Shown here piece by piece: positions 2,227 through 44,056 of a DNA stretch of 64,000 nt (the stretch's first letter is position 1; every line of letters starts with the position of its first letter). The stretch covers positions 1-64,000 of the forward strand of contig CACKPV010000002.1 of assembly GCA_902602185.1 (NCBI GenBank), read 5' to 3'. A program made the position numbers and the translations under genes. Source of the stretch: an uncultured SAR86 cluster bacterium. GTDB taxonomy: Bacteria; Pseudomonadota; Gammaproteobacteria; Magnimaribacterales; D2472. The notes beneath the pieces were generated by a model. The model did not search any database, had not been told where the DNA came from, and saw only the letters and a program-made list of their open reading frames with translations.

Positions 2227-5049
2227 ATGAAAAGCATTTCAATCAAGGGTGCCAGAACCCACAATTTAAAGGAAGTCGATGTTGATATTCCTAGAAATAA
2301 ATTGGTGATCATTACCGGTCTATCTGGTTCAGGAAAATCTTCATTAGCTTTTGATACCTTATATGCCGAAGGACAAAGGAGGTATGTAGAATCTTTATCA
2401 GCATATGCGAGACAATTTTTGTCAATGATGGATAAGCCTGATGTTGATCAGATTGAAGGTTTATCTCCAGCAATTTCTATTGAACAAAAATCAGCTTCAC
2501 ACAACCCAAGATCTACTGTTGGAACAGTCACAGAAATTTATGACTACCTAAGACTTTTATATGCGAGAGTTGGGATTCCCAAATGTCCTGATCATGGGGA
2601 AGAACTCAAGGCAAAAACTATTTCTGAAATTGCTGATGTAATTGAATTAATGAATGAAAACGAAAAAATAATGATCTTAAGTCCGATTATAAGAGGAAAG
2701 AAGGGGGAGCACCTTGGAATCTTTGAGCAATTACAAATAGAAGGTTTTGTCAGGGTCAAAATCAATAATACTGTCTATCAACTGGACGATACACCAAAAT
2801 TAGATAAGAACAAAAAACATGATATTGCTGCAGTAATAGATCGTCTTGCTGTAAAAAAAACAGATGAATTTAGATCTCGTCTAACAGAATCACTTGAAAC
2901 AGCAGCTAGTCTTTCTGAGGGAATAATTGAAATCAACACAATTGGAAAAGAAACTGAATCGCAATTATTTTCTACCAATTTTTCGTGTCCTAAATGTGGT
3001 TACTCTATTAGTGAACTGGAGCCCAGAATTTTTTCATTTAATAGTCCTTTTGGAGCCTGCAAGAAATGCGATGGGATTGGTGTCATACAATTTATAGACC
3101 CCAGTAAAATAATTCCTGATGACTCTGTATCAATAAGTAATGGGGCCATAAAAGGTTGGACTCGTAGAAATAGATTTTATTTTTATCAGTTAAAATGTTT
3201 AGCTAAACATTTTGATTTTAGTCTGACAATGAAATGGAAAGATTTAGATCAAGAAGTACAAGACATCATTCTCTATGGTTCTGATGAAGTTATTGACTTC
3301 TCTCATAGGTTCAGAAGTGGAAGTAGAATTGTTCGCAAACATAAATTTGAGGGTGTTCTGATAAATACTGATAGACGCTTTAGAGATACAGACTCTGAAT
3401 ATATGAGAACAGAATTATCTAAGCTGTTATCTGAAAAGAATTGTGATTCATGCAATGGATCTAGGTTAAAAAAGGAGTCACGAAATGTATTTATAAATGA
3501 TTCTCCAATTAATGTAATAACTGAGATGCGAATTAATACTAGCTTAAATTTTATAAAAAAAATTAGTCTAAAAGGTAATCGAATAAAGATAGCTGAAAAA
3601 ATTCTAAAGGAAATTCAAGATCGATTAACTTTTTTAAACAATGTGGGTTTAGGATATTTGTCACTCGATAGAAGTGCTGAATCACTATCTGGAGGTGAAG
3701 CACAGAGAATAAGATTGGCAAGTCAAATTGGTTCCGGTCTTGTAGGTGTTACATATATTTTGGATGAGCCCAGCATCGGTCTGCATCAACGTGATAATAA
3801 TAAGTTAATAGAGACACTTAAAAATCTCAGAGATCTTGGGAATACTGTAATTGTGGTGGAGCATGACGAAGATGCTATGCGACAATCTGATCATATAATT
3901 GATATGGGTCCTGGAGCAGGAGTACATGGTGGAAAAGTTTGTGCTCAAGGAAATTTAAAAGATATTCTTAAAAATAAAAATTCAATAACAGCAGAATATC
4001 TTTCCAAGAAGAAAGAAATAAAAGCACCTTACAAAAGATCAAAACATAATAATAATTTCATAAAAATTCGATCAGCATTTGAAAATAATCTAAAAAAAAT
4101 AAATGTTGATATCCCGGTAGGATTATTTACTGCTGTCACTGGTGTATCTGGTTCAGGTAAATCAACACTAATAAATCAGACATTGCTTCCAATGAGTACA
4201 TTTCTCTTAAATAGATCGACTTTGAAGAAAGAAATCAAATGTGAACGAATTGAGGGCCTAGAAGACCTAGACAAAGTAATAAATATTGATCAATCACCGA
4301 TTGGAAGAACACCTCGTTCAAATCCAGCAACTTACATTGGTCTCTTCTCAAACATACGAGACCTCTTTGCTCAAACTATAGATTCAAGAGCAAAAGGCTA
4401 CAAACCTGGGAGATTTAGCTTTAACGTAAAAGGTGGTCGTTGCGAAGCATGTCAAGGTGATGGGCTTATTAAAGTTGAAATGCATTTTCTTGCAGATGTT
4501 TATGTTACCTGCGATATTTGCAAAGGATCAAGATATAATGAGCAGACTCTTGAAATCAAGTATAAAAATAAAAGTATCAGTGATGTTTTAGAAATGACAG
4601 TTGAGGATGCTTTAGATTTTTTTGACTCTATCCCCTCAATTAAGAAAAAATTATCAACATTATCAAGTGTAGGACTTAACTACATCAAACTTGGTCAATC
4701 AGCTACTACATTGTCTGGAGGAGAAGCTCAAAGAATAAAATTATCAAAAGAGCTTTCAAAAAGAAGCACTGGAAAAACACTGTTTATTTTGGATGAGCCG
4801 ACAACAGGACTCCACTTTGCTGATATACAAATGTTATTAAATGTATTATTCGAATTAAAAAAACAAGGGAACACGATTGTGGTCATTGAACATAACTTAG
4901 ATGTGATTAAGACTGCAGATTGGATTATTGATTTAGGTCCTGAAGGTGGTATTGATGGTGGTGAGTTAGTAGTTGCCGGAACACCAGAGGATGTTTCAAA
5001 ACACAAAGGTTCTTTTACTGGAGAATTTTTAAAACCGATGTTGAAATAA
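2227..5049 (+). CDS. uvrA: Excinuclease ABC subunit A
   Basis: Damage-recognition ATPase of nucleotide excision repair. The 940-aa chain has the family's two ABC modules: Walker [10 protein letters not shown] near residue 31 and GVSGSGKST in the second half, with signatures [14 protein letters not shown] and [14 protein letters not shown], each followed by a DEP Walker B. Zinc-binding Cys pairs appear as CPKCGY/CKKCDG in the first half and [14 protein letters not shown] in the second. It is divergent from ssb and convergent with rplQ, with only 4 bases between the stops. No SOS box is visible upstream, so damage induction may be absent or handled differently (inference). Confidence 0.98.
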
Positions 5050-40099: not shown

Positions 40100-40136
40100 T
40101 TTTCATCATAATTTATTAAATGTATAAAATAAACAT
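40100..40136 (+). promoter_or_regulatory. Candidate promoter with Zur-like palindrome
   Basis: Plus strand: TTTTCA (40100-40105), 17-base spacer, TATAAA (40123-40128). Over the -10 lies ATGT-N9-ACAT (40120-40136), which has the same 17-base span and outer arms as the gammaproteobacterial Zur core ATGTTATANTATAACAT, though the inner bases match poorly. The genes downstream look zinc-related, which makes a Zur operator plausible. In such AT-rich DNA it could be chance. Confidence 0.3.
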
Positions 40137-40171
40137 GGAATTTAAAACTTTCTTTAAGTTAAAATAATGTC

Positions 40172-40417
40172 ATGAGCAAAATCATAGAGGATCTTAAGTC
40201 AGGGGAAGTTCTCATAAAATTTAAATCGTTAAGAAGCGGGAGAATAATTACTGAAAAATGCTCTTTAAATTCTGACCTAGTCCCAAAACAGTACTCTTTT
40301 AAACAGAATAATGAATCTGATAGTCTGCTTTGCTACCTTACTGAAAAGGAGCGATGGGAAGACATTCAAAAGGATTCCATTATTGAGTATAAAATTATTT
40401 CAGAGGAGAAATTATGA
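40172..40417 (+). CDS. Small WYL_2/DUF2693-like SH3-fold protein
   Basis: Function unknown. The 81-aa product has the layout of the Sm/SH3-like WYL_2 (DUF2693) domain: GEVLIKFKSLRSGRIITEKCSLNSD (parts), a charged middle, then a LLCYLTEKERWEDIQKDSI-like end resembling the family's WDLEK.xWRSF.xDSI pattern. No signal peptide or membrane segment. Its stop overlaps the ATG of the alcohol dehydrogenase by 4 bases, so they are coupled. The assignment is by pattern recognition only. Confidence 0.6.
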   Translation: MSKIIEDLKSGEVLIKFKSLRSGRIITEKCSLNSDLVPKQYSFKQNNESDSLLCYLTEKERWEDIQKDSIIEYKIISEEKL

Positions 40418-41469
40418 AAGCGTTTCAAATTAAAAAAAACGGAGAGCCACTTGAGCAAGTTGAACTTGAGAAGCCGACTGCAGTTGGTAACGAAATACTA
40501 GTAAAAACTATTGCATGTGGAGTGTGTCACTCCGATGTCCATATTCATGATGGTTATTTTGATTTGGGAGGTGGTGCTCAATTACCAACTCCCGCAGCAG
40601 ACCTTTCCATGGGTCATGAGATTTACGGAGAAGTTGTGGCAATAGGTGATACTGCTTCAGATGTATCAATTGGTGAAAAATTTGTAGTTTATCCTTGGAT
40701 TGGGTGTGGTGAGTGTGAAGATTGTTTATCGGGTAATGAACATTATTGTGGCCCAACGACTAACAAAAATTTAGGCATTACTGAAAATGGGGGATATGGT
40801 GAATTTGTATTGGTTCCTGATAAAAAATATCTCTTTAGTGCTGGTGATACACCAGATGAATTAGCTGGAAGTTATGCTTGTAGAGGACTTACCGCATACA
40901 GTGCAATTCAAAAAGCAAATATAAAAGAAGGTCAAAATTCAGTTGTAATTGTTGGTGCCGGTGGTATGGGTTTACTAGCAGTAAAAATCATCCAGGCGGT
41001 ATACTCCATCAATCCGATTGTTGTGGATATAGATGATGCAAAGTTAGAGATTGCAAAGTCCCTCGGAGCTTCTCATGTTGTTAATTCCTCCTCTCCCGAA
41101 GAGGCAATGATGAAAATTTTTGAAATCACTGGAGGCGCAACAAGTGTTATTGATTTTGTAGGGGCAGCACCTGCTTTTGAATTTGCTTATAATCTCTTTG
41201 GTCTGCGCCGAGGAGGTACCTATGTTTTGGTTGGGCTTCTAGGAGGGCAAACGACTATTCAATTACCCATGGTCACACTAACAGCAAGATCAATCTTAGG
41301 CAGCTATGTTGGCAGTCTTTCTGAAATGGGAGAATTAATGGAATTGGTAAGTTCTGGAAAAATTGATCCTACACCCGTTGAAGTTAGAAATATTTCTGAA
41401 TCTAATGAAGTTTTAGAAGGAATGCGTTGTGGAAAAGTCAATGGTATTGTATGCTTCACGCATGACTGA
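40414..41469 (+). CDS. Zinc-dependent alcohol dehydrogenase (MDR superfamily)
   Basis: NAD(P)-dependent oxidation of an alcohol, substrate unknown. The 351-aa chain has the catalytic zinc ligands Cys38 (CGVCHSD) and His68-Glu69 (SMGHEIYGE), and the structural zinc lobe Cys98, Cys101, Cys104 and Cys112 (GCGECEDC...YC). The Rossmann fold has VIVGAGGMGLLAV and ends in VVDIDDAKLE, with Asp suggesting NAD preference. The first strand of the MDR fold begins at the ATG. It overlaps the next small gene by 8 bases. The enzyme binds two zincs, which fits its place in a zinc-related operon. Confidence 0.93.
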   Translation: MKAFQIKKNGEPLEQVELEKPTAVGNEILVKTIACGVCHSDVHIHDGYFDLGGGAQLPTPAADLSMGHEIYGEVVAIGDTASDVSIGEKFVVYPWIGCGECEDCLSGNEHYCGPTTNKNLGITENGGYGEFVLVPDKKYLFSAGDTPDELAGSYACRGLTAYSAIQKANIKEGQNSVVIVGAGGMGLLAVKIIQAVYSINPIVVDIDDAKLEIAKSLGASHVVNSSSPEEAMMKIFEITGGATSVIDFVGAAPAFEFAYNLFGLRRGGTYVLVGLLGGQTTIQLPMVTLTARSILGSYVGSLSEMGELMELVSSGKIDPTPVEVRNISESNEVLEGMRCGKVNGIVCFTHD

Positions 41470-41749
41470 TTCTCGGACAAGCAATAAATATATTCTTCTT
41501 GGTATATTTTTTCTTCTGTCACTTTCTATTCATGAATTTACTCATGTTTTCGAAAAAGATGATGCACATCATCAAGAAGTTATTGGTCTTGAGTGTGACG
41601 TTTGTGAATATAATGAAACAGATTTTGCGGACAACTCTCATTCACTAATCAAAAAAAGTTTTGATGAGAATCTTTTTTTAAAGAAGTTAAGACTCTTTTC
41701 AAAATCATTTAATCTTTACCTTCAAAGAGCTCCACCGCAGAAAAATTAA
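41462..41749 (+). CDS. Small membrane/periplasmic His-Cys protein upstream of TonB receptor
   Basis: A 95-aa protein of unknown function. One N-terminal hydrophobic segment (about residues 9-23) could be a signal or anchor. It is followed by possible metal ligands: His24 and His28 (HEFTH), His36-His37, and a Cys45-x-x-Cys48 pair, then a C-terminal RAPP motif. I recall similar small proteins (signal, CxxC, RAPP end) next to metal-uptake TonB receptors, but cannot verify this here. The start at 41462 overlaps the dehydrogenase stop by 8 bases; the frame extends to 41429, but those residues precede the hydrophobic segment and seem spurious. Confidence 0.7.
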   Translation: MTDSRTSNKYILLGIFFLLSLSIHEFTHVFEKDDAHHQEVIGLECDVCEYNETDFADNSHSLIKKSFDENLFLKKLRLFSKSFNLYLQRAPPQKN

Positions 41750-41786
41750 TTAAGATTTTTAATTATTTTTTTTAATAGGAGTAAAC

Positions 41787-44012
41787 ATGCAAAAAAAATT
41801 ATTTACACTTTTAATATTAAGTGCTTTTTCTGCTAACTATATCCATTCGGAAGTAGTAGAAGAAGTAGTAGTGCAAGCCTCGTTGCTTGGACAAACTGAA
41901 GATGGGATAAGCGATCCTCTTCATATTCTTGATGGTGCTGAAATTGCTGATATGGCAACTACAAGTTTAGGTGAGACACTTGATTCTTTGGCAGGGGTTA
42001 CAACTGCAGATTACGGTTCTGCTGTTGGACAGCCTATCATTAGAGGATTGAGTGGATTGAGGGTTAAAGTTTTAACCAACGGTCTTGTAAACAGAGATGT
42101 AGCGGGCATTGGTGCAGATCACAAAAATGAAGTTGATCTTTTTGATATTCAACAAGTTGAAGTTGTGCGAGGACCATCATCACTACTTTACGCAAATGGT
42201 GCTACAGGTGGAATCGTAAATATTGTTGACAATGCAATAGCCACTTCTGATGTTGAAGATATGAGTATTAAGTTAGGTTTTGAAACCCAATCAGTAAACT
42301 CTGGTGATAGTCAAAACTTTGCATACAGTGATAATGTTGGGGGTTTAAATCTTTATTTCTCATATTCTGATTCTGCATTTGGCAATTATGATATTCCAAA
42401 TGGTGCCGTTCTTCATGAAGAAGAGCATCATGATGAGGATCATGATGAGGAAGAGCATGATGAGCATGATGAAGATATGGGTTACCTTGAAAATTCAGAT
42501 TCAGCTCAAGAAGCAACTAGATTTGGAGTCTCCAAAGTTGGTGATTGGGGATATGTCGGTATGTCTCTAAGCAACTCAGAAAGTGTTTTTGGTGTTCCAT
42601 ACCATGGTGAAGGTCATAGTGATGAACATGGAGACGAAGAGGACGGTCATGATGAACATGAAGGAGAAAGAATCTTCTCCGTAACTGATTCGGATAAATT
42701 TAATATCAAAGGGTCAATAGCTCTTGATAGAAATTTAGTAAATAGCGTGGATTTTTTCTTCCAAGATTCTGAGTATGCTCATACTGAACAACATGCTGAA
42801 GAAGAGCATGGTGATGAAGAAGAGCATGGTGATGAAGATGATCACGGACATGGTGAAGAAGGTCCGACAACCTTTAGTAATGATTCTTCTGAATATGGTC
42901 TTATATTCGATCTTTCAAACGACGCAATGACTCAAAAAGTATCATTAAATATTTCAGATGAAACCATTAAAATTTTTGGTGATGAAGCTTTTATGAATCC
43001 AGCTGAAAGAGAAGAACTTACCTTAGGATATTTTGCCAATAGGGAAATTGGATTATTTGATGTAAGTTTTGGCATAAGATATGACCAAATCGACACCAAT
43101 GGTTCGATTACTGAGCATCATGAGGAAGAGCATCACGATGAGGAAGAAGAACACGAAGAAGAAGAGGAAGAGACAACAAATTATAACTTTGATACAAATA
43201 ATTTGAGTTTTTCTATTGACCTTCGCAGATCCCTCAATGAAAACTGGGATGTTAATTTTGGTTATTCCAGCCTTGAGCGAGCTCCTTCAGTGGTTGAGCT
43301 GTTTATGAATGGCCCGCATTTAGCAACAGGACGATTTGAAGTAGGTAATACTAATCTTGCCACTGAAACCTCTAATAACATCGACCTTGGAGTAAGTTAT
43401 GCAAATGATAATTTCTTTGCATCATTATCATTCTTTATAAATGATGTTGATAATTATGTGTATCTTATGGATATGCATGAGGAAGAGCACCATGATGAGG
43501 ATGAAGATCATGATGAGGAAGAACACGAAGAAGGTCACGATGACCATGGTGGTCTCATTCTTGCAAATTACCTTCAAGAAGATGCTGAACTGGATGGATA
43601 TGAACTTGAAATTGGCAGAGTATTCAATCTAGCAAGTGGAGATCTAGAAGTATCTTTTTCAAGAGATGTTGTCAATGGAAGCTTATCAAGCGGAATGAAT
43701 ATTCCCAGAATGAGTCCTGCAAGAAATATTTATTCAGTAGGATATTCTGTAAATGATTATTTGTTTGATTTGAGTTTCAAGGATGTAGACTCTCAAACAG
43801 ATACTGCTGAAGAGGAATCCGCAACCAGTGGTTACCAGATGCTTGATGCCAAACTCGTTAGGACTTTCGACCTGAATGGGAATTCTTTAAGAGTATCTGT
43901 ATTTGCAAATAACCTTCTTGATGAGGTTGCAAGAAACCATGCTTCTTTTGTAAAGAATCAAGTTCCTTTACCAGGTAAAAATTTTGGTTTACGTTTTAAC
44001 CTAAGTTTTTAA
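41787..44012 (+). CDS. TonB-dependent receptor, ZnuD-like, with five His-rich loops
   Basis: Outer-membrane active transporter, most likely for zinc. The 741-aa protein has a signal peptide (about residues 1-21), a TonB-box-like VEEVVVQAS, the plug (LDSLAGVTTADYGSAVGQPI in parts, PIIRGLSGLRVKVLTNG, VEVVRGPSSLLYANGATGGIVNIVD) and a beta-barrel ending in Phe741. Five acidic His-rich blocks (residues 210-230, 273-293, 332-358, 443-462, 564-588) fall where extracellular loops are expected. ZnuD of Neisseria, and copper/zinc receptors of other bacteria, use similar loops. A strong terminator follows. Copper is the main alternative metal. Confidence 0.9.
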   Translation: MQKKLFTLLILSAFSANYIHSEVVEEVVVQASLLGQTEDGISDPLHILDGAEIADMATTSLGETLDSLAGVTTADYGSAVGQPIIRGLSGLRVKVLTNGLVNRDVAGIGADHKNEVDLFDIQQVEVVRGPSSLLYANGATGGIVNIVDNAIATSDVEDMSIKLGFETQSVNSGDSQNFAYSDNVGGLNLYFSYSDSAFGNYDIPNGAVLHEEEHHDEDHDEEEHDEHDEDMGYLENSDSAQEATRFGVSKVGDWGYVGMSLSNSESVFGVPYHGEGHSDEHGDEEDGHDEHEGERIFSVTDSDKFNIKGSIALDRNLVNSVDFFFQDSEYAHTEQHAEEEHGDEEEHGDEDDHGHGEEGPTTFSNDSSEYGLIFDLSNDAMTQKVSLNISDETIKIFGDEAFMNPAEREELTLGYFANREIGLFDVSFGIRYDQIDTNGSITEHHEEEHHDEEEEHEEEEEETTNYNFDTNNLSFSIDLRRSLNENWDVNFGYSSLERAPSVVELFMNGPHLATGRFEVGNTNLATETSNNIDLGVSYANDNFFASLSFFINDVDNYVYLMDMHEEEHHDEDEDHDEEEHEEGHDDHGGLILANYLQEDAELDGYELEIGRVFNLASGDLEVSFSRDVVNGSLSSGMNIPRMSPARNIYSVGYSVNDYLFDLSFKDVDSQTDTAEEESATSGYQMLDAKLVRTFDLNGNSLRVSVFANNLLDEVARNHASFVKNQVPLPGKNFGLRFNLSF
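42414..43550 (+). repeat. Five dispersed His/Asp/Glu-coding blocks in the TonB receptor
   Basis: Codon-level repeats of GAT/GAG/CAT/GAA encode acidic His-rich loops at 42414-42476, 42603-42665, 42780-42860, 43113-43172 and 43476-43550. Runs such as EEHHDEDHDEEEHDEH recur with changes, suggesting expansion of short repeats. They account for spurious open frames on both strands in this stretch. Confidence 0.85.
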
Positions 44013-44023
44013 TCTCACTATAT

Positions 44024-44056
44024 AAAAACGAGTCTAGCAATAGACTCGTTTTTTTT
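44024..44056 (+). terminator. Rho-independent terminator after the zinc-type operon
   Basis: A perfect 13-base-pair stem, AAAAACGAGTCTA / TAGACTCGTTTTT, closes a GCAA tetraloop (44037-44040), and the run of T continues to 44056. The GNRA-type loop makes it very stable. It is the best intrinsic terminator in the window, and because the stem starts with A residues it could also work for the opposite strand. Confidence 0.92.

What the first reader, a model, noticed from the sequence alone, without database searches (positions are those of the whole stretch)
40100..44056. Compact zinc-type operon: SH3-fold protein, zinc alcohol dehydrogenase, His/Cys small protein, His-rich TonB receptor
Seen: four plus-strand genes overlap by 4 and 8 bases or lie 37 bases apart, start from one promoter and end at one strong terminator. 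The last is ZnuD-like, the third has HxxxH/HH/CxxC ligands and a RAPP end, and the second binds two zincs. Known: ZnuD receptors and Zur-controlled loci import zinc. Inferred: a coordinated zinc scavenging unit that includes a zinc enzyme and an uncharacterised SH3-fold protein. I do not recognise this exact combination as described.
Basis: partly seen in the sequence, partly recalled or inferred. Interest (0 to 1): 0.72.

Follow-up and report, generated by a model that had tools for sequence, protein, structure and literature searches.

The report
Zinc-type arrest-peptide switch before zinc receptor
In an ocean bacterium of the SAR86 kind, a tiny gene in front of a probable zinc-import receptor looks like a sensor that works while it is being made, stalling its ribosome to unlock the receptor's start signal, much as a known copper switch is thought to do.

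Summary
The four genes, overlaps and terminator are as described; the promoter claim is not supported. The genome is SAR86-like. The conserved unit is the small third gene plus the receptor (58 of 61 loci), not all four. The dehydrogenase is a passenger: an iron-type enzyme takes its place in 12 loci, and 30 of the 65 genomes with a homologue are in genera that do not keep it beside the receptor. Gene 1 is a phage-type SH3-fold protein in 12 of 107 genomes. The receptor is ZnuD-like; three of ZnuD's four zinc ligands are invariant in a 9-sequence alignment. [quoted passage not shown] Its Ala-Pro codons pair with the receptor's Shine-Dalgarno in a hairpin; modelling a ribosome on RAPP lowers the cost of opening the SD from 7.4 to 2.4 kcal/mol. 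ORF3 relatives also head ZnuA/ZnuB operons, and a related genus has Zur boxes there. Best reading: a zinc-type CruR-like arrest peptide controlling a zinc receptor, in a genus where no Zur was found. Stalling, zinc response and direction are inferred, not shown. New variant of a known kind.

The parts
40172..40417 (+). ORF1, 81 aa, WYL_2-like SH3/Sm-fold protein of phage type; passenger
   Evidence: AF2 model pLDDT 90.9; Foldseek best hits phage 'WYL domain' proteins, E 1.1e-5; viral homologues at 36-43% identity; 12 of 107 genomes
40414..41469 (+). zinc-type medium-chain alcohol dehydrogenase; passenger
   Evidence: PF08240 7.3e-24, PF00107 1.5e-23; 27 of 61 receptor loci; homologues in 65 of 107 genomes
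41462..41749 (+). ORF3, 95 aa, candidate zinc-responsive RAPP arrest-peptide uORF (CruR-like)
   Evidence: directly upstream of the receptor in 58 of 61 loci; xAPP C-terminus 61 of 61, CxxC 60 of 61, spacing 40-41
41594..41605 (+). CxxC codons of ORF3 (putative metal sensor)
   Evidence: C45 invariant and C48 at least 90% in 37 sequences
41726..41737 (+). RAPP codons AGA GCT CCA CCG: arrest motif; the Ala-Pro codons also act as anti-Shine-Dalgarno in the predicted fold
41729..41782 (+). hairpin: GCUCC 41729-41733 pairs with GGAGU 41778-41782 (receptor SD); inner stem joins tail codons and stop to the arm before the SD
   Evidence: fold and z -4.11; cost of opening the SD 5.4 -> 1.1 kcal/mol with a ribosome on RAPP
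41777..41782 (+). strong Shine-Dalgarno AGGAGT of the receptor
   Evidence: SD with at least 5 of 6 AGGAGG bases in 58 of 60 receptor genes against 23 of 504 other gene starts of these loci (other starts are longest-ORF starts, which undercounts)
41787..44012 (+). ZnuD-like TonB-dependent receptor, 741 aa
   Evidence: NF038289 ZnuD 206 bits, cut-off 950; best solved structure ZnuD 4rdr, E 1.4e-59
42117..42122 (+). Asp111-His112, aligned with ZnuD Asp99-His100 (zinc ligands)
   Evidence: invariant in the 9-sequence alignment A3; aligned to ZnuD (numbering counted by hand); ligands named in PMC4557270
43317..43319 (+). His511, aligned with ZnuD His499 (zinc ligand)
44024..44053 (+). intrinsic terminator

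Best explanation
ORF3 is a regulatory upstream open reading frame that controls translation of the zinc receptor behind it. Inferred: when zinc is scarce, the ribosome making ORF3 stalls at its C-terminal Arg-Ala-Pro-Pro. The stalled ribosome covers the RAPP codons and the stop region. Computed: those bases otherwise form a hairpin that buries the receptor's strong Shine-Dalgarno, so a ribosome there makes it cheaper to open. Inferred: when zinc is plentiful, the emerging ORF3 chain binds zinc through CxxC and nearby histidines, the arrest is relieved, ORF3 is finished, the hairpin closes and receptor synthesis stops. ORF1 and the dehydrogenase lie upstream of this switch and so are not governed by it.
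For: Conservation: orf3 directly before the receptor in 58 of 61 loci, gap 35-48 nt in all but one (743 nt, receptor broken); the pair also occurs in two other families of the order and in more distant genomes. Features of CruR: xAPP 1-4 residues from the C-terminus in 61 of 61 (51 RAPP, 10 QAPP), CxxC in 60 of 61, spacing 40-41; RAPP in 0 of 761 other ORFs of these loci. Linker length sd 1.0 against 5.0 for the N-terminal part in 20 sequences. CruR itself: CXXC senses copper, RAPP needed, spacing 45 conserved within 1-2, heads TonB-receptor operons (PMC9426467); its RAPP arrest was shown in vitro (PMC12992588, passage). RNA: RAPP-to-ATG region z mean -3.82, below -2 in 55 of 57; eleven other gene types of these loci average -1.0 to +0.5, MerC -4.1; cost of opening the SD 7.4 -> 2.4 kcal/mol with a ribosome on RAPP, drop over 1 in 56 of 57, mean unchanged with it 51 nt upstream; inner stem stronger with its own partner than with other genera's, 0 of 5000 genus permutations. 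Zinc: receptor closest to ZnuD with three zinc ligands invariant in A3; five ORF3 relatives head operons of a probable outer-membrane protein, ZnuA and ZnuB, and one more lies beside znuACB; Zur box in 7 of 7 loci of genus g6, 5 of whose 7 genomes have a second FUR-family gene, two of them tested and Zur-like.
Against: Nothing here measures stalling or zinc response. Genus g4 has QAPP, not RAPP, in all its 10 loci, and an Arg-Ala double mutant of CruR lost function. One family member lost the second Cys (L096), and three of ten distant ones lack CxxC; those three (L166, L167, L168) are among the six ZnuA-linked relatives, so CxxC is not needed throughout the zinc-linked set. In the pairing model the SD's mean unpaired probability rises only from 0.15 to 0.34, by more than 0.2 in 23 of 57 (25 C). 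RNAalifold on the MAFFT alignment found no consensus structure. RAPP codon choice is only slightly biased towards SD pairing (above the simulated mean in 41 of 57, mean P 0.45), and own RAPP-SD pairing beats genus permutations weakly (209 of 5000 as good). SD burial is as strong with a shuffled linker (0.153 vs 0.152). One genome (G048) has the receptor and a Zur box but no uORF. CruR acts by Rho termination in a 162-nt gap, not by SD release. Copper is not excluded: DUF2946 proteins mostly sit with copper genes.
Confidence: 0.64

Rival explanations
1. ORF3 is a true copper-sensing CruR and the receptor imports copper or another metal.
For: Characterised members (CruR, CutF) sense copper; the L125 relative is nearest to DUF2946; CxxC suits Cu(I) and is missing in three of the six ZnuA-linked relatives.
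Against: Receptor scores far higher with ZnuD than with the copper-receptor model TIGR01778 (206 vs 40 bits); zinc ligands kept; relatives head ZnuA/ZnuB operons; Zur boxes in g6.
Confidence: 0.16
2. ORF3 is a periplasmic or membrane-anchored zinc carrier that hands zinc on; RAPP and the hairpin are by-products.
For: Hydrophobic N-terminus, His/Cys-bearing, next to the receptor.
Against: Only the Cys pair, one Phe and APP are invariant or nearly so in 37 sequences; fixed CxxC-RAPP spacing with variable sequence; hairpin z -3.8.
Confidence: 0.09
3. All four genes form one zinc-starvation regulon including the dehydrogenase and ORF1.
For: Overlapping genes and shared terminator; overlaps or short gaps recur in relatives.
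Against: Dehydrogenase homologues away from the receptor in g4, g5, g6, iron-type enzyme in its place; ORF1 in 12 of 107 genomes; no Zur found in this genus and no box here.
Confidence: 0.08
4. The hairpin is only a weak terminator or a chance AU-rich fold, and ORF3 affects the receptor by plain translational coupling.
For: AU-rich inner stem and U-run in the window; RNAalifold found no consensus.
Against: z below -2 in 55 of 57 loci, near 0 at most neighbour gene starts; arms co-evolve; SD unpaired under 0.2 in nine of ten distant loci, z below -2 in six.
Confidence: 0.1

Closest known systems
CruR (bp2923, DUF2946) of Bordetella pertussis
   Same: small protein heading a TonB-receptor gene; CxxC and near-C-terminal RAPP at conserved spacing (PMC9426467: outline, passages, sections 9 and 10)
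   Different: senses copper; spacing 45 not 40-41; 162-nt gap with Rho-dependent termination instead of a 35-48-nt gap with an SD-burying hairpin; Pfam DUF2946 not reached by the window protein
CutF of Rhodobacter capsulatus
   Same: nascent exported metal sensor with a stem-loop shielding the next gene's SD (PMC9973294: passages and section 11)
   Different: copper, CxxxC, proline-rich end, turns a copper oxidase on
SecM / ApdA / ApdP arrest peptides
   Same: C-terminal RAGP or RAPP arrest in cis before a regulated gene (abstract starts; passages)
   Different: linked to protein localisation, not metals
ZnuD zinc receptor of Neisseria
   Same: TonB receptor with His/Asp-rich loops; Asp99, His100, His499 equivalents kept
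   Different: 206 bits, below the ZnuD model's cut-off 950; Zur-controlled in Neisseria; Glu340 equivalent not established

Membership tests
CruR / DUF2946 RAPP uORF | C-terminal RAPP | tested here: met
   window RAPP; 51 RAPP + 10 QAPP of 61
CruR / DUF2946 RAPP uORF | CxxC at conserved spacing to RAPP | tested here: met
   60 of 61; spacing 40 or 41 in 57; the other 3 (value 96) I put down to over-long ORF starts; CruR has 45
CruR / DUF2946 RAPP uORF | N-terminal export signal | tested here: inconclusive
   hydrophobic N-terminal stretch, KD15 above 1.6 in 50 of 61; no signal-peptide predictor run
CruR / DUF2946 RAPP uORF | Pfam PF11162 match | tested here: not met
   window protein 0 families; only the distant relative L125 reaches 21.7 bits, cut-off 23.7
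CruR / DUF2946 RAPP uORF | translation arrest and metal-relieved control | not testable with these tools
   needs toeprinting and reporters
ZnuD receptor | curated model NF038289 score | tested here: not met
   206 bits, cut-off 950; still the best model
ZnuD receptor | high-affinity site Asp99, His100, Glu340, His499 | tested here: inconclusive
   three of four aligned and invariant in nine receptors; Glu340 region not aligned
Zur regulon | Zur gene in the genome | tested here: not met
   own genome no FUR-family hit (82% complete, so not final); in genus g1, 4 of 10 genomes have one FUR-family match each, the three tested are iron Fur, G002's fragment not tested
Zur regulon | Zur box before the operon | tested here: not met
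   best match 6 of 14 mismatched (consensus from memory); met in 7 of 7 loci of genus g6
WYL_2 (PF10902), ORF1 | Pfam score and fold | tested here: inconclusive
   2 of 11 members match weakly, best 0.085; viral homologue 0.011; fold matches phage WYL proteins
zinc-dependent MDR alcohol dehydrogenase | ADH_N and ADH_zinc_N domains | tested here: met

The most novel reading that the evidence does not exclude
A zinc-type class of RAPP arrest peptides exists across Gammaproteobacteria and heads both ZnuD-like receptors and ZnuA/ZnuB operons. In this SAR86 family, where a second, Zur-type FUR gene was seen in 8, ZnuA in 4 and ZIP in 0 of 107 genomes, this nascent-peptide switch is the main zinc control, and the arrest motif's codons double as the anti-Shine-Dalgarno, so one stretch of bases encodes both the brake and the lock.
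Probability: 0.48. Interest if true: 0.86.

Novelty: new variant of a known kind. Interest (0 to 1): 0.72.

Why it matters
In the papers I saw, transition-metal control by a DUF2946/RAPP-type uORF is shown for copper (CruR, called the first such uORF for a transition metal in PMC9426467; CutF). A zinc version would extend the principle to a second metal, explain how a streamlined ocean lineage with little sign of Zur could tune zinc import, and replace a default 'zinc carrier' reading of such small genes. The hairpin and the RAPP/CxxC spacing make it testable with a reporter in E. coli.

Tried and rejected
Rejected: four-gene zinc regulon; Zur control in this genus; ORF3 as carrier; dehydrogenase as a conserved partner. 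Negative or weak: the search for related loci with the ORF3 alignment found no usable stretch; RNAalifold on A6 gave 0 pairs; synonymous-codon test weak; two Zur and two Fur box patterns over all 60 upstream regions were at most slightly above shuffles (the 17-base Zur pattern 10.55 against 10.34, sd 0.12; the others not above), the clear Zur signal being confined to genus g6; three-mismatch Zur-like sites just before MerC in G045, G046, G047, G049 but not in G050, G051; Pfam and NCBIfam found no family for window ORF1 and ORF3; PHROGs only weak. Of the 12 ORF3 matches outside the family, one (G154, a multihaem-like protein) was dropped as false; of the six outside matches, G107 and G154 were dropped. 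Four of the matches (G137, G282, G248, G335) were already in the profile A5; they had been found first with the family-only profile A1.

Paper searches made. Zinc with arrest peptide and TonB-dependent: 0 papers; zinc uptake with ribosome stalling and leader peptide: 0. The word zinc does not occur in the main text of PMC9426467, PMC12992588, PMC10987492 or PMC9973294. Only open-licence PMC papers are held, so print elsewhere is not excluded. Also looked at, passages only: PMC10563805 and PMC4176598.

Full report
Setting. Of the eight named records closest by receptor protein (72-73% identity) seven are uncultured SAR86 cluster bacteria and one is titled Pseudomonadota bacterium, so the genome is SAR86-like. 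Group codes g1-g10 are the tool's genera within one family of 107 genomes; the window's genus is g1.

Observation. All coordinates, overlaps and the terminator hold. Promoter-like sites are not above chance (21 found, 25.8 expected). Window ORF1 and ORF3 match no Pfam or NCBIfam family; the dehydrogenase is a zinc-type MDR enzyme; the receptor's best NCBIfam model is ZnuD at 206 bits, well under its cut-off of 950.

What is conserved. A strong receptor match (best E below 1e-90) is present in 85 of 107 family genomes, my count; all 107 have some TonB-receptor match. I fetched flanks for 60 of the 84 others, later 3 more. In the first 60 loci plus the window, orf3 sits directly before the receptor in 58 of 61. 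The gap is 35-48 nt, except 743 nt in L103, whose receptor is broken. The zinc dehydrogenase is present in 27 loci, ORF1 in 10. In 12 loci an iron-type dehydrogenase (PF00465) sits in the dehydrogenase's place; g4, g5 and g6 loci have neither.

The passengers. Zinc-type dehydrogenase homologues (E up to 1e-60) occur in 65 of 107 genomes and the iron-type in 20 of 107, with no genome in both lists (lists compared by eye; about 12 expected if independent). Thirty of the 65 are in g4, g5, g6 and g10, where the match lies away from the receptor wherever a strong receptor match was found. Sixteen of the 20 iron-type genes lie beside the receptor, by coordinates. On a receptor tree the zinc/iron state changes at least 6 times (quick method, receptor only, so recombination could inflate it). 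The iron enzyme's best NCBIfam model is 4-hydroxybutyrate dehydrogenase (466.9 bits, cut-off 500). ORF1 occurs in 12 of 107 genomes, is predicted as an SH3/Sm-like barrel (pLDDT 90.9), and its best structural matches are phage WYL-domain proteins and WYL regulators in the PDB (none below 0.001). Homologues at 36-43% lie in 11 viral contigs. It looks like a phage-type gene in the operon; its role is unknown.

Zinc. With the receptor profile the best solved structure is ZnuD (4rdr, E 1.4e-59; the next hit is a colicin receptor at 1e-16). ZnuD's buried zinc is held by Asp99, His100, Glu340 and His499 (PMC4557270, passages). Asp111-His112 and His511 of the window receptor align with three of them (my counting) and are invariant in nine diverse receptors. 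The Glu340 region did not align. An ORF3 profile from the family (A1) run over 369 class genomes hit six genomes outside the family, four of them real; with these added (A5) it gave 14 places in 13 genomes. Twelve lie outside the family: six before a TonB receptor (G137, G282, G248 twice, G191, G225), five before a probable outer-membrane protein (weak or no Pfam match), ZnuA and ZnuB (G335, G218, G465, G250, G164), one false. G225's pair is also divergent from znuA-znuC-znuB. ZnuA was confirmed by Pfam in five of these six zinc loci (G218, G465, G250, G164, G225) and ABC-3 in three (G335, G218, G225); the rest are read by eye. The G335 relative touches DUF2946 (0.00035, below the cut-off). 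Upstream of the 28 receptor matches an open frame ending in a [RQ][AG]PP motif was found in 23; I did not check in each that it is the gene directly before the receptor.

Regulation by Zur. Across the family ZnuA is found in 4 of 107 genomes, ZIP in 0 of 107, the FUR family in 86 of 107. A clear second FUR-family gene (E below 1e-13) is seen in 8 genomes: G015, five of the seven g6 genomes and both g10 genomes. Seven first-copy FUR proteins tested, three from this genus, best match iron Fur, six over its cut-off. Three second copies tested (two g6, one g10) best match Zur (106-123 bits, cut-off 167). In all seven g6 loci a Zur box with at most 2 of 14 mismatches lies at orf3, or before the receptor where orf3 is missing; 0 of 56 other loci have this at their first gene, and 1 of 4000 random 190-nt segments of the same loci does. 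The window's best match has 6 mismatches. So Zur control seems to apply to a related genus, not to this one as far as an 82% complete genome can tell.

ORF3 as an arrest peptide. The literature gave the key: CruR, a DUF2946 protein, is a uORF whose CxxC senses copper and whose RAPP is needed for expression of the TonB receptor behind it (PMC9426467, outline, passages, sections 9 and 10). CutF shields its target's SD with a stem-loop (PMC9973294, passages and section 11). RAPP arrest of CruR was later shown in vitro (PMC12992588, passages and section 13), and RAPP/RGPP uORFs before TonB receptors were noted there as a class. In 61 family members ORF3 ends in xAPP 1-4 residues before the stop (51 R, 10 Q, the Q all in g4); 60 have CxxC; the spacing is 40 or 41 in 57, and I put the other three values down to over-long ORF starts; none of 761 other ORFs in these loci has RAPP. 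The linker's length hardly varies (sd 1.0) although its sequence does; the N-terminal part varies more (sd 5.0, 20 sequences). Of ten distant relatives all end in RAPP, seven have CxxC (spacing 40-44); the three without it (L166, L167, L168) are all ZnuA-linked. G191 was not in that count; by eye it has both motifs.

The hairpin. In the window GCUCC (41729-41733, the Ala-Pro codons) pairs with GGAGU (41778-41782, the receptor's SD), and the tail codons and stop pair with the bases before the SD. Over 57 loci the fold from RAPP to ATG has mean z -3.82, below -2 in 55. Eleven other gene types of the same loci average -1.0 (TBDR2, 12 of 47 below -2) to +0.5; MerC, in 12 loci, averages -4.1. Receptor genes have a strong SD in 58 of 60 against 23 of 504 other starts, 14 of these msrA (the other starts are longest-ORF calls, so this is a lower bound). 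The cost of opening the SD falls from 7.4 to 2.4 kcal/mol with a ribosome footprint on RAPP, over 1 kcal/mol in 56 of 57, and stays at 7.4 on average with the footprint 51 nt upstream. The inner stem is far stronger with its own partner than with another genus's (-6.15 vs -2.38; 0 of 5000 genus permutations), the RAPP-SD helix modestly so (209 of 5000). Ala codon GCT is used in 18 of 19 loci with SD GGAGT and 14 of 38 with GGAGG (Fisher 3.6e-5, not corrected for relatedness). Against: RNAalifold found no consensus, the synonymous test is weak, unpaired probability rises only 0.15 to 0.34, and SD burial does not depend on the linker. Of ten distant loci nine have the SD unpaired under 0.2 and six have z below -2; L122 and L163 have z near 0, L167 -1.8, and L166 has no such hairpin (their start codons are ORF calls and several of their SDs are weak).

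Verdict. A CruR-like, zinc-type arrest-peptide switch in front of a ZnuD-like receptor. Arrest, relief by zinc and the direction of control are inferred from CruR; architecture, conservation and the RNA lock are computed. I found no report of a zinc version in the ten paper searches named in Tried and rejected.

Noticed in passing
L065:9203-10333 and 11 other loci; Zinc-type and iron-type dehydrogenases were never found in the same genome (65 and 20 of 107), and the state at the receptor locus changes at least 6 times on a receptor tree; a possible zinc-sparing exchange.
   Followed up: partly
L140:8123-8524 (own genome C2:229164-229499); L086:9002-9424: MerC-family membrane proteins match in 92 of 107 genomes where ZnuA (4) and ZIP (0) are nearly absent; directly after the receptor in 12 of 61 loci: candidate inner-membrane zinc importer.
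   Followed up: partly
L186:3303-3686 with box at 3687-3701: In G048, which has no ORF3 before its receptor, a MerC-like gene (sub-threshold Pfam match) starts right next to a perfect match to the Zur box pattern.
   Followed up: partly
61 nt before MerC, 12 loci: Strong folding (mean z -4.1, all 12 below -2) before MerC; could be the receptor's terminator or another switch.
   Followed up: no
L206, L215: RGPP instead of RAPP small frames upstream of a receptor match in a SAR92 record and of a more distant one in a Flavobacteriaceae record.
   Followed up: no
window:44108-46678: A second TonB receptor follows after the terminator; its cluster has 47 members in the 61 loci.
   Followed up: no
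L103 (G100): The receptor is split into two frames in this genome, with ORF1, dehydrogenase and ORF3 still called.
   Followed up: no
window:54247-59025: Complete rRNA operon (16S, 23S, 5S) on the minus strand.
   Followed up: no
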